Assembly: GCF_041296385.1 (NCBI RefSeq)
Contig: NW_027184085.1
Coordinates: 14,441,301-14,505,300 of the forward strand
Length of the DNA: 64,000 nt
DNA from: Aphelocoma coerulescens
Taxonomy: Eukaryota; Chordata; Aves; Passeriformes; Corvidae
Reading direction: 5' to 3'
Of the stretch, positions 25,982 to 28,225 are shown one piece after another. The position numbers and the translations under genes were made by a program. Position 1 is the stretch's first letter; each line of letters starts with the position of its first letter. The notes under the pieces were generated by a model that was given only the letters and a program-made list of their open reading frames with translations, was not told the DNA's origin and searched no databases.

Positions 25982-26269
25982 TGTTGGGGCCATCCCCCTG
26001 CCATGGGGTGCTGGAAGAGGGGTCCTGGGATGGCGACACGGGGTTTCCCTGCCCCGGTCAGCCTCGTTCCCCATTGGTTGTTCTGTGTTCCCCTGCGCGG
26101 GCAAGGACCCTCAGGTCCTGTGATTGCAGCAGTTCTTTGGCAGAACTCCAGCCATGTGGCTGGAGAAACAAACATTTCCGAAACATCTATCAAGAATCAG
26201 TCCATATATATTTCTTTTCCACGGGCCTCATTGTCTGATAGATCATGTTGCAGTATCTGCACTGTAACA
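25982..26269 (+). repeat. 5' LTR of the Y-box element
   Basis: 288 bases, starting TGTTGGGGCC and ending CTGTAACA. Contains CCCCATTGGTTG (inverted CCAAT box) and an AT-rich CCATATATATTTC segment. Matches the 3' LTR along its whole length. Confidence 0.85.
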
Positions 26270-26373
26270 AATGGTGGTAGTGTGGGCAAGACACCAATCC
26301 CTACAGCAACTGATTTGTGAGTAAACTCTGGATTCCTCTTCTTGTTTTTGTTTTGCTATTCCATATCTAAACT

Positions 26374-26787
26374 ATGGAGGAACCGTGGAAAGACTCTTGG
26401 CTCTCCAAGCTGCATATGGACATTTATCTTAAACTTGAAAAGATTCTTGAACAACGATTTGTAAATCTTGGCTTAATTCAAGCTCAAAAGGAACTGAAAC
26501 ACTTCCTGGCATGGTTGTTTAAGAACTTTTTCTATGTTTCTTGGGATTTAATTCTTACCAAAGACTTTTGGAATACCGTTTGGACACAGTTAATTTTTGA
26601 GTCAAAATACATGCCAATGGAAGAATATTTTCGTGAATATTATTTAATTACCGAGACTGTTGAGCAATGTCAGCTGTGTCCTGGCAAAGGGAAGCCCGAC
26701 TCAGGGACTGTGTGGCCCAGGCCACATGGACCGAGCGCTCTGCGAGCAGCAGCGAGGCAGATCCTGCATGCAGGTGGAGCGGCGTGA
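26374..26787 (+). pseudogene. Gag matrix-like N-terminal frame
   Basis: A 137-codon frame begins MEEPWKDSWLSKLHMD about 100 bases after the 5' LTR, the place of gag in a retrovirus. The first 100 or so residues are helical in character, with a Trp/Phe-rich part (KHFLAWLFKNFFYVSWDL), which fits a matrix-type Gag N-terminus that would bind membrane. From about residue 100 the composition changes to Gly/Pro/Ala-rich as base composition jumps to GC, so the Gag part seems to stop there. No capsid, zinc knuckle or protease follows. The Gag identity is inferred from position and character, not from a motif. Confidence 0.45.
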
Positions 26788-27097
26788 GCTGCAGTGTCAG
26801 CAGAGGAGCAAGGCGTGACGGGAGCGGGACGACCCGGTGGTGCCCGCCCGGCCCCGCGCAGCGCGTGGTGGAGCGAGTCCTGTGTACGCCCGACCAAAAG
26901 GGGCGGTGAGCGGGTGGCGGCTGGCGGCGGTGGCGGTGGAGCGGAGCTGCGCCCAGCCGAAACATGCGCTGGAGCAGGGTGCGGGGGCCATTGCTTGGGG
27001 GCCCGGCTGAGACGGTGCGGCGCCAGGCAGCGGCAGCGCAGCTGAGAGCAGAGGAGACGGTGAGCAGGGAGCTGAGCAGCGCGGCCCGGCCCAGCCC
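26690..27097 (+). other. GC-rich interior segment, likely captured with the Y-box sequence
   Basis: Base composition rises abruptly at about 26690, with many CpG, and falls again after about 27180. The frame of the Y-box sequence is open from 27011 and reads Ala/Gly/Ser-rich upstream of the ATG at 27098, much as the N-termini of YBX proteins do. A 5' leader and N-terminus taken over from a host mRNA would explain this. Confidence 0.45.
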
Positions 27098-27694
27098 ATG
27101 TGGCCCCAAATGCGACCCCTAGAAGAGCGTGCAGGCACCAGCAGCCCCAACAGCTCCAACGCGGGAGCGAGCGAAAACGAAAGAGGAACCAAGAATGCAG
27201 TGAGACAGAAAACAGCAGCCACTTGGAAAAAGGAAAAAATCACCATAGCTAAGGTTTTAGGAATAGTAAAATGGTATAATGTTAAATAAAATTATGGTTT
27301 TATAACAAGATATGACAATCAAGAAGACATATTCATTCATAGAACTGCTATTAAAAAGAATAACCCTGAAAAATACATCCCAAGCTTGGGAGATAGAGAG
27401 GTAGTGGAGTTCAAAATTGTGCAAGGTAGAAAAGGCTTACAATCAGCAAATGTTACTGGGCCTGGGGGTATTCCAGTCAAAGGCAGCCGTCATGCACAAA
27501 ATTATAAACAATATCCATCCCAGGAGCTTCCCTACCCACAACCTACTTTCCCCTTTTACCCTATACCCAGTATGAACCCTTTCCTAAGTTTATTCCTTCC
27601 CCATCCCCAGTTTATTCCTAATCCATTTTTCACCCCATGGTTTCCCTATACAATTCCCTTTCCTTACAACTCCTCTCCGATGCTGAGGGGGTGA
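27098..27694 (+). pseudogene. Captured Y-box (YBX-type) cold-shock domain protein, one internal stop
   Basis: From the ATG at 27098 the frame runs 198 codons with a single TAA at 27287-27289 (codon 64). Residues 52-133 read as a cold-shock domain of the YBX family: KVLGIVKWYNVK, then NYGFI (RNP1-like), DIFIHRTAIKKNNPEKY (RNP2-like) and NVTGPGGIPVKGS. The KKNNP and TGPGG blocks separate it from LIN28. YBX proteins bind single-stranded nucleic acid and package mRNA. After the domain, instead of the usual alternating basic/acidic islands, comes a 65-residue tail with 17 Pro and 9 Phe. The stop replaces the residue before the RNP1 motif. Apart from it the frame is open, suggesting the parent element kept it under constraint. 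It might also be a processed YBX copy that landed in the element, but the lack of a poly(A) tract and its place between Gag and the 3' LTR favour capture. Confidence 0.8.
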
Positions 27695-27934
27695 TGAAAA
27701 GGGGGAGGGAAGAAATTAAACCCTCTCCTGCCTCAGTTTCTCCACAAAGCATGCCTAGAGAGTCCTGTCTCCTTTCTGTCAGCCTTAGGATGTTCCAGAG
27801 AATCTGTTTGGACATTTAAAGACTCAGGAGGGTGGCTTGTTTTGTTTTGAAACTGTCCTTGTTATCTCATGTTTATCCAGTTGTTTTCAATGTTAAGTTT
27901 TAAATCTCTCTTTGTTAAAAATAAATGGGTGAAA

Positions 27935-28225
27935 TGTTGGGGTCCCTTCCCCCTGCCATGAAGCCCTGGGAGAGGGGTCCTGGGATGGAGACACGGGGTT
28001 TCCCTGCCCCTGGTCAGCCTCGTTCCCCATTGGTTGTTTTGTGTTCCCCTGCGCGGGCAAGGACCCTCAGGTCCCGTGATTGCAGCAGCTCCTCGGCAGA
28101 GCCCCGGCCATGCGGCTGGAGAAATGAACATCTCTGAAACATCTATCAAGAATCGGTCCATATATATTTCTTTTCCACGGGCCTCATTGTCTGATACATT
28201 GTGTTGCAGAATCTGCACTGTAACA
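27935..28225 (+). repeat. 3' LTR of the Y-box element
   Basis: 291 bases, starting TGTTGGGGTC and ending CTGTAACA, followed by GGATAA at 28226-28231. About 10 percent different from the 5' LTR by eye, mostly substitutions. Confidence 0.85.

What the first reader, a model, noticed from the sequence alone, without database searches (positions are those of the whole stretch)
25982..28225. LTR element that has captured a host Y-box (YBX) cold-shock gene
Seen: two ~290-bp LTRs, a GGATAA duplication on both sides, a Gag-like start, and a YBX-type cold-shock domain in the same orientation between them, with no pol or env. Known: acquisition of host genes by retroviruses is well documented for oncogenes, but I know of no established family of LTR elements carrying a Y-box protein. 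Inference: a non-autonomous class II-like element took up a YBX cDNA, perhaps because an RNA-packaging protein helps copy, protect or package element RNA.
Basis: partly seen in the sequence, partly recalled or inferred. Interest (0 to 1): 0.88.

Follow-up and report, generated by a model that had tools for sequence, protein, structure and literature searches.

The report
Songbird retroelement carrying a Y-box gene
This stretch of bird DNA is an old, broken copy of a mobile element family that took up part of a host gene for an RNA-binding Y-box protein, and a well-known insertion linked to crow plumage very probably belongs to the same family.

Summary
The element is real: 2,244 bp, LTRs of 288 and 291 bp (25 mismatches in 288 columns), GGATAA on both sides, and a Y-box-type cold-shock domain (CSD) inside.

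It is not a one-off. Nine database proteins of one crow, Corvus moneduloides, belong to the family; one stands for a cluster of 24 sequences. In two of the nine (P0014, P0017) the N-terminal segment, a GC-rich linker and the CSD form one uninterrupted protein. One crow gene model joins the CSD to the same LTR.

The window copy is dead: it has a stop inside the CSD and a broken frame. The N-terminal segment could not be identified as Gag.

A published PCR primer inside the 2.25-kb crow NDP insertion (ERVK subfamily corCorLTRK1b, 296-bp LTRs) encodes this family's tail motif 6/6; 0 of 1,000 random 20-mers did. That insertion is therefore very probably a member. The second internal primer gave no informative match.

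Copies in the window's own genome were not counted: the genome search did not complete (18 tries). Packaging by the CSD is inferred.

The parts
25976..25981 (.). target-site duplication GGATAA, left
   Evidence: sequence
25982..26269 (+). 5' LTR, 288 bp
   Evidence: 91% identical to the 3' LTR over 288 columns
26270..26373 (+). leader between LTR and first frame; its first 24 bases are matched by crow gene model P0012 together with the LTR end
   Evidence: tblastn, residues 263-305 of P0012 to 26165-26293, E 2.6e-6
26374..26787 (+). N-terminal ('Gag-like') frame, 137 codons; the first 99 residues match crow P0014 at 89/99 and P0017 at 87/99
   Evidence: Gag identity not confirmed
26788..27202 (+). 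GC-rich linker, coding in crow relatives, broken here
   Evidence: tblastn of P0010, P0011, P0014, P0016, P0017; 67-76% GC in most of it
27203..27484 (+). basic stretch and Y-box-type cold-shock domain, with an in-frame stop at 27287-27289
   Evidence: Pfam CSD in the crow relatives
27485..27694 (+). rest of the CSD flank and Pro/Phe-rich tail
   Evidence: alignments with P0001-P0003 and crow proteins
27695..27934 (+). 3' non-coding part
   Evidence: sequence; its start is matched by P0012 up to 27760
27935..28225 (+). 3' LTR, 291 bp
28226..28231 (.). target-site duplication GGATAA, right
   Evidence: sequence

Best explanation
The window holds a decayed copy of a songbird LTR element family in which everything behind a first coding segment was replaced by a reverse-transcribed Y-box (YBX) mRNA. 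Less decayed crow relatives encode one fused protein of about 440 residues: N-terminal segment, GC-rich linker, CSD, Pro/Phe tail. Having no pol, the element must be copied by the enzymes of other elements, most likely class II ones (inferred). Best guess for function: the CSD binds the element's own RNA and the N-terminal segment brings that RNA to particles made by a helper, so that the CSD stands in for the nucleic-acid-binding end of Gag. Shown: LTRs and duplication, Y-box CSD, fused frame in crow proteins, several related proteins in one crow. Strongly indicated: membership of the crow NDP insertion. Inferred: the cDNA route, the helper, RNA binding, packaging.
For: LTRs and duplication. 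Y-box rather than other CSD: P0012 matches YB-1 at 9e-35, YBX2 at 6e-33, the best bacterial chain at 1e-11, LIN28 at 6e-7; window piece likewise. Nine crow proteins, one standing for 24 sequences. Fused frame: P0014 and P0017 start at the window's 26374 codon and run through the CSD. LTR and CSD in one crow gene model. Four residues recalled as RNA contacts kept in 12 of 12 sequences that cover both motifs (3 of 15 rows do not cover both). CSD more conserved than linker in 5 of 5 crow pairs (p 0.0063 to 5e-15; the two P0012 pairs are inflated because its linker looks unrelated). Element size, LTR size and one internal primer agree with the NDP insertion.
Against: No search identifies the N-terminal segment as Gag (viral models only at E 1.8 or worse). 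N-terminal segment against linker is not significant in 3 of 7 pairs (p 0.053, 0.41, 0.7; few residues). Conservation was counted on proteins predicted because their frames are open, and the linker is GC-rich and may mutate faster; no dN/dS was possible. Members of the 24-sequence cluster were not seen; some may be isoforms. The second internal primer of the NDP insertion gives only 4/6, a chance level. No expression, binding or packaging data.
Confidence: 0.72

Rival explanations
1. Passenger: the Y-box segment was captured once and was carried along because the LTRs were copied, but its protein does nothing for the element.
For: Many transduced host genes are passengers as far as the virus is concerned (recalled). 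The only copy whose DNA I have is broken. The open crow frames are a biased sample, since broken copies would not be predicted as proteins.
Against: Fused frame open over 440 and 376 residues in two proteins that differ by 15-40% per segment, CSD and N-terminal segment more conserved than the linker; four RNA-contact residues kept in 12 of 12.
Confidence: 0.3
2. Domesticated gene: the crow proteins are host genes derived from the element, kept for a host function.
For: Long open frames predicted as genes in the crow. Host genes derived from LTR-element Gag are known (PMC3406341, listing only).
Against: A 24-sequence cluster plus eight more proteins in one bird looks like a mobile family. A crow model runs into the LTR. 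P0004 and P0007 contain antisense reads of the element, a sign of automatic annotation.
Confidence: 0.06
3. One-off: a processed Y-box copy happened to land inside this single LTR element.
For: Only one copy lies in the window, and its own genome could not be searched.
Against: The crow proteins share first segment, linker, CSD and tail with the window.
Confidence: 0.02

Closest known systems
corCorLTRK1b, the ERVK insertion 20 kb upstream of NDP in crows (PMC7341801; passages and section 24 read)
   Same: Length 2.25 kb against 2,244 bp; LTR 296 bp against 288/291; ERVK against a 6-bp duplication; internal primer P_L_R_2 encodes the crow family's tail motif 6/6.
   Different: Young (under 534,000 years by the paper) and still segregating, whereas the window copy has 9% LTR divergence. 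A term look-up in that paper found no Y-box, YBX, 'cold' or gag, so the captured gene is not described in its main text.
Crocodilian ERVs with captured KIT-ligand and nectin3 (PMC4299795; passages read)
   Same: Inherited element family carrying a captured host mRNA; purifying selection reported there for the captured frames.
   Different: Those keep viral genes (KIT-ligand lineage) or replace env (nectin3) and carry cell-surface or signalling proteins; here no pol is left and the captured part is an RNA-binding domain fused to the first coding segment.
Gag-oncogene transducing retroviruses of birds (recalled, no call)
   Same: LTR, shortened first gene fused in frame to a host cDNA, no pol or env, dependence on a helper.
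   Different: Those are infectious, short-lived isolates with oncogenes; this is an inherited many-copy family, and its N-terminal segment is not proven to be Gag.

Membership tests
Class II (ERVK-like) LTR element | paired LTRs with TG...CA ends and a 6-bp target duplication | tested here: met
   that 6 bp is typical of class II is recalled
Class II (ERVK-like) LTR element | Gag homologous to class II Gag | tested here: inconclusive
   no match by Pfam, PDB sequence, profile or fold; no songbird Gag was available for comparison
Class II (ERVK-like) LTR element | own pol (reverse transcriptase, integrase) | tested here: not met
   no pol-like frame between the LTRs; at most a non-autonomous derivative
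Class II (ERVK-like) LTR element | tRNA primer-binding site behind the 5' LTR | not tested
   a TGG follows the LTR by two bases (sequence); no tRNA comparison was run
Y-box (YBX) protein family | cold-shock domain closest to Y-box proteins | tested here: met
   Pfam CSD above cut-off in all seven relatives scanned
Y-box (YBX) protein family | arginine-rich C-terminal region as in host Y-box proteins | tested here: not met
   the family has a Pro/Phe-rich tail instead (compare P0018 and P0013)
Y-box (YBX) protein family | placement inside bird YBX1, YBX2 or YBX3 | tested here: inconclusive
   no bird YBX in the tree; family on one long branch apart from 12 host proteins (of 112 listed, my choice) and 3 PDB chains; window identity 54/89 to YBX1, 53/89 to YBX2
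corCorLTRK1b (NDP insertion) | length and LTR length | tested here: met
   2,244 bp and 288/291 bp against 2.25 kb and 296 bp
corCorLTRK1b (NDP insertion) | internal primer P_L_R_2 lies in the family's tail | tested here: met
   6/6 residues in 7 of 14 family proteins; 0 of 1,000 random 20-mers reach 6
corCorLTRK1b (NDP insertion) | internal primer P_R_F_1 lies in the family | tested here: inconclusive
   best 4/6, reached by 657 of 1,000 random 20-mers
Gag-host fusion transducing retrovirus | first gene fused in frame to host cDNA without pol or env | tested here: inconclusive
   fusion shown in P0014 and P0017, but the first segment is not shown to be Gag
Gag-host fusion transducing retrovirus | helper-dependent infection and cell transformation | not testable with these tools
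   needs experiment

The most novel reading that the evidence does not exclude
An LTR element rebuilt its first protein from a host part: a Y-box cold-shock domain took the place of the nucleic-acid-binding end of Gag, giving a partly host-derived RNA-packaging protein that let a pol-less element spread in songbirds on the particles of other elements. Sublineages exchanged segments (the window copy looks like a mosaic with a switch near 27440), and one insertion of this family is the one associated with NDP expression and plumage in crows.
Probability: 0.3. Interest if true: 0.87.

Novelty: new variant of a known kind. Interest (0 to 1): 0.74.

Why it matters
Capture of host genes by inherited LTR elements is known, but an RNA-binding domain fused to the first coding segment of a pol-less element suggests how such an element might secure packaging of its own RNA. 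It would also give a well-known crow plumage insertion a coding content that its paper's main text does not mention, and it makes a direct question testable: does that insertion act only through its LTR and position, or is a Y-box fusion protein made from it?

Tried and rejected

Nucleotide match of the primers to the window: P_L_R_2 has 14 unbroken bases at 27634-27647, but a flank primer (A_F_3) also reaches local score 14 elsewhere in the window, so this match alone decides nothing; inside the element the other primers reach 10 at most.

Literature: ten searches (listings of open-licence papers only) showed no title about a Y-box-carrying LTR element. 'Y-box' was looked up in the main text of 7 of the 9 papers opened with 0 hits; PMC6523648 was asked for 'cold' and 'host gene' and PMC4299795 for gene-capture terms. 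Supplements and subscription papers were not seen, so the capture may be in print elsewhere or noted in a repeat library.

Full report
What is there. Between 25982 and 28225 lies a complete LTR element of 2,244 bp. The LTRs are 288 and 291 bp, begin TGTTGGGG, end CTGTAACA and differ at 25 of 288 aligned positions (20 transitions, 5 transversions) plus three gap columns; GGATAA stands directly outside both. With recalled bird rates of 1.9 to 3.4 substitutions per billion years the K2P distance of 0.094 gives about 14 to 25 million years. With the rate used in the crow paper (0.0158 per site per million years) the same distance gives about 3 million years (my arithmetic). No pol- or env-like frame is seen between the LTRs.

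The coding parts. A frame at 26374-26787 encodes an N-terminal segment. It runs into a GC-rich stretch, then a Y-box-type cold-shock domain and a Pro/Phe-rich tail. In this copy the CSD has a stop at 27287-27289 and its frame is out of phase with that of the first segment. The piece behind the stop matches YB-1 chains at E 1e-27.

It is a family. The first protein search gave nine proteins at E up to 0.001: P0001-P0007 I count to the family, P0008 and P0009 I read as host-type Y-box proteins. Two more searches brought the crow (Corvus moneduloides) set to nine: P0004, P0007, P0010, P0011, P0012, P0014, P0015, P0016, P0017. P0014 stands for a cluster of 24 sequences, which I could not see; some may be isoforms. 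One search listed the best 120 of 135 hits. P0014 and P0017 begin at the codon where the window's first frame begins and continue unbroken through linker and CSD; P0014 also has the tail. P0016 starts further in (window 26611), P0010 and P0011 within the linker. The N-terminal segment of the window agrees with P0014 at 89 of 99 residues and with P0017 at 87 of 99.

Link of CSD and LTR elsewhere. Crow P0012 matches the window from 27197 to 27760 (CSD, tail, start of the 3' non-coding part) and then from 26165 to 26293, that is the end of the LTR and the first 24 bases behind it (E 2.6e-6); an overlapping part also matches the 3' LTR (E 7e-4). So CSD and LTR stand together outside this window. 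That leader follows the LTR there suggests a gene model spliced into, or a tandem arrangement with, another copy.

Y-box origin. P0012 matches YB-1 at 9e-35, YBX2 at 6e-33, the best bacterial chain at 1e-11 and LIN28 at 6e-7. In the maximum-likelihood tree of the CSD region the window, P0001 and ten crow or ENA proteins are separated from 12 host Y-box proteins (my choice among 112 listed) and 3 PDB chains by a long branch with 100% ultrafast bootstrap. The tree holds no bird YBX and no other cold-shock family, so it neither names the donor nor tests the wider family. A CSD without introns and a GC-rich upstream part fit capture of a spliced mRNA (inferred; no bird gene structure was examined).

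Mosaic. In the middle of the CSD the window agrees with crow proteins at 28 to 31 of 33 residues and with P0001 at 22 of 33. At the end of the CSD it agrees with P0001-P0003 at 21 to 22 of 25 and with the seven crow proteins of full coverage at 15 to 16 of 25. In the tail it agrees with P0002 and P0003 at 51 and 52 of 57, with P0001 at 38 of 57, with P0014 at 28 of 49. A switch near 27440, by template change between sublineages, is the likely reason; I made no formal recombination test.

Constraint. Four residues that I recall as RNA contacts of the Y-box CSD are kept in 12 of 12 sequences covering both motifs; 3 of 15 rows do not cover both. The CSD is more conserved than the linker in 5 of 5 crow pairs (p 0.0063 to 5e-15); the two pairs with P0012 are inflated, since its linker looks unrelated. 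The N-terminal segment is more conserved than the linker in P0014/P0017 (p 1.3e-6), P0014/P0016 (0.011, 22 residues) and both window pairs (0.025, 0.0004), not in P0017/P0016 (0.053, 22 residues) nor in the two P0012 pairs (0.7, 0.41, 7 residues). These are protein counts on frames predicted because they are open, without correction for the linker's composition: they suggest constraint and do not prove it.

What failed. No method identified the N-terminal segment as Gag. 'Gag-like' rests on position and on a mainly helical model of modest confidence. The genome search did not complete in 18 tries, so neither the window's own genome nor any relative was searched at the DNA level, and the species of the window is not known to me.

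The crow link. PMC7341801 describes a 2.25-kb ERVK insertion (corCorLTRK1b, 296-bp LTRs) 20 kb upstream of NDP, with lower NDP expression in homozygotes and an association with plumage (passages; section 24). Of its two internal primers, P_L_R_2 encodes HPWFPS, the exact tail motif of P0010, P0011, P0012, P0014 and P0015; read in other frames it also matches P0005 and the antisense-read end of P0004 at 6/6, so 7 of 14 family proteins match at 6/6. None of 1,000 random 20-mers from the window outside the element reached 6; 31 reached 5. The four flank primers, which should not match, reached 4 or 5 of 6 to 8 residues. The other internal primer, P_R_F_1, reached 4 of 6, a chance level, and did not match the window element. 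The paper says the internal primers lie in the LTR regions; but its fragment sizes (659 bp filled, 197 bp empty) put P_L_R_2 at least 470 bp inside the insertion, beyond a 296-bp LTR, and the corresponding place in the window is 594 bp from the element's end (my arithmetic). I take membership of the NDP insertion as about 90% likely. The main text of that paper holds no 'Y-box', 'YBX', 'cold' or 'gag'.

Mechanism. Best guess: a fused protein in which a host RNA-binding domain serves the element's RNA, with copying by enzymes of other class II elements. The main rival is a passenger role. The window carries an uninterrupted integrase-type frame of another retroelement at its far end (62945-63736); whether such an element ever served as helper is a guess.

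Noticed in passing
62945-63736, minus strand: Uninterrupted 263-codon frame with a retroviral integrase core (PF00665, E 3.8e-22) and C-terminal DNA-binding domain (PF00552, E 4.1e-7): part of another retroelement running off the window.
   Followed up: partly
15176-16252 and 16839-18155, minus strand: Two similar neighbouring frames with RING-finger and Arg/Ser-rich parts; the second has zf-C3HC4 at E 1e-7, the first was not scanned. They look like a tandem pair of Topors-like genes (recalled likeness).
   Followed up: partly
6792-6866: Perfect tandem repeat of a 29-bp unit, 2.6 copies, inside a 257-codon minus-strand frame.
   Followed up: no
crow database proteins P0004 and P0007: Predicted crow proteins whose ends are antisense reads of this element: element sequence annotated as genes in that proteome.
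   Followed up: partly
27440 (approximately), within the element: The window copy changes its closest relatives here, from crow-type CSD to the tail type of ENA proteins P0001-P0003.
   Followed up: partly
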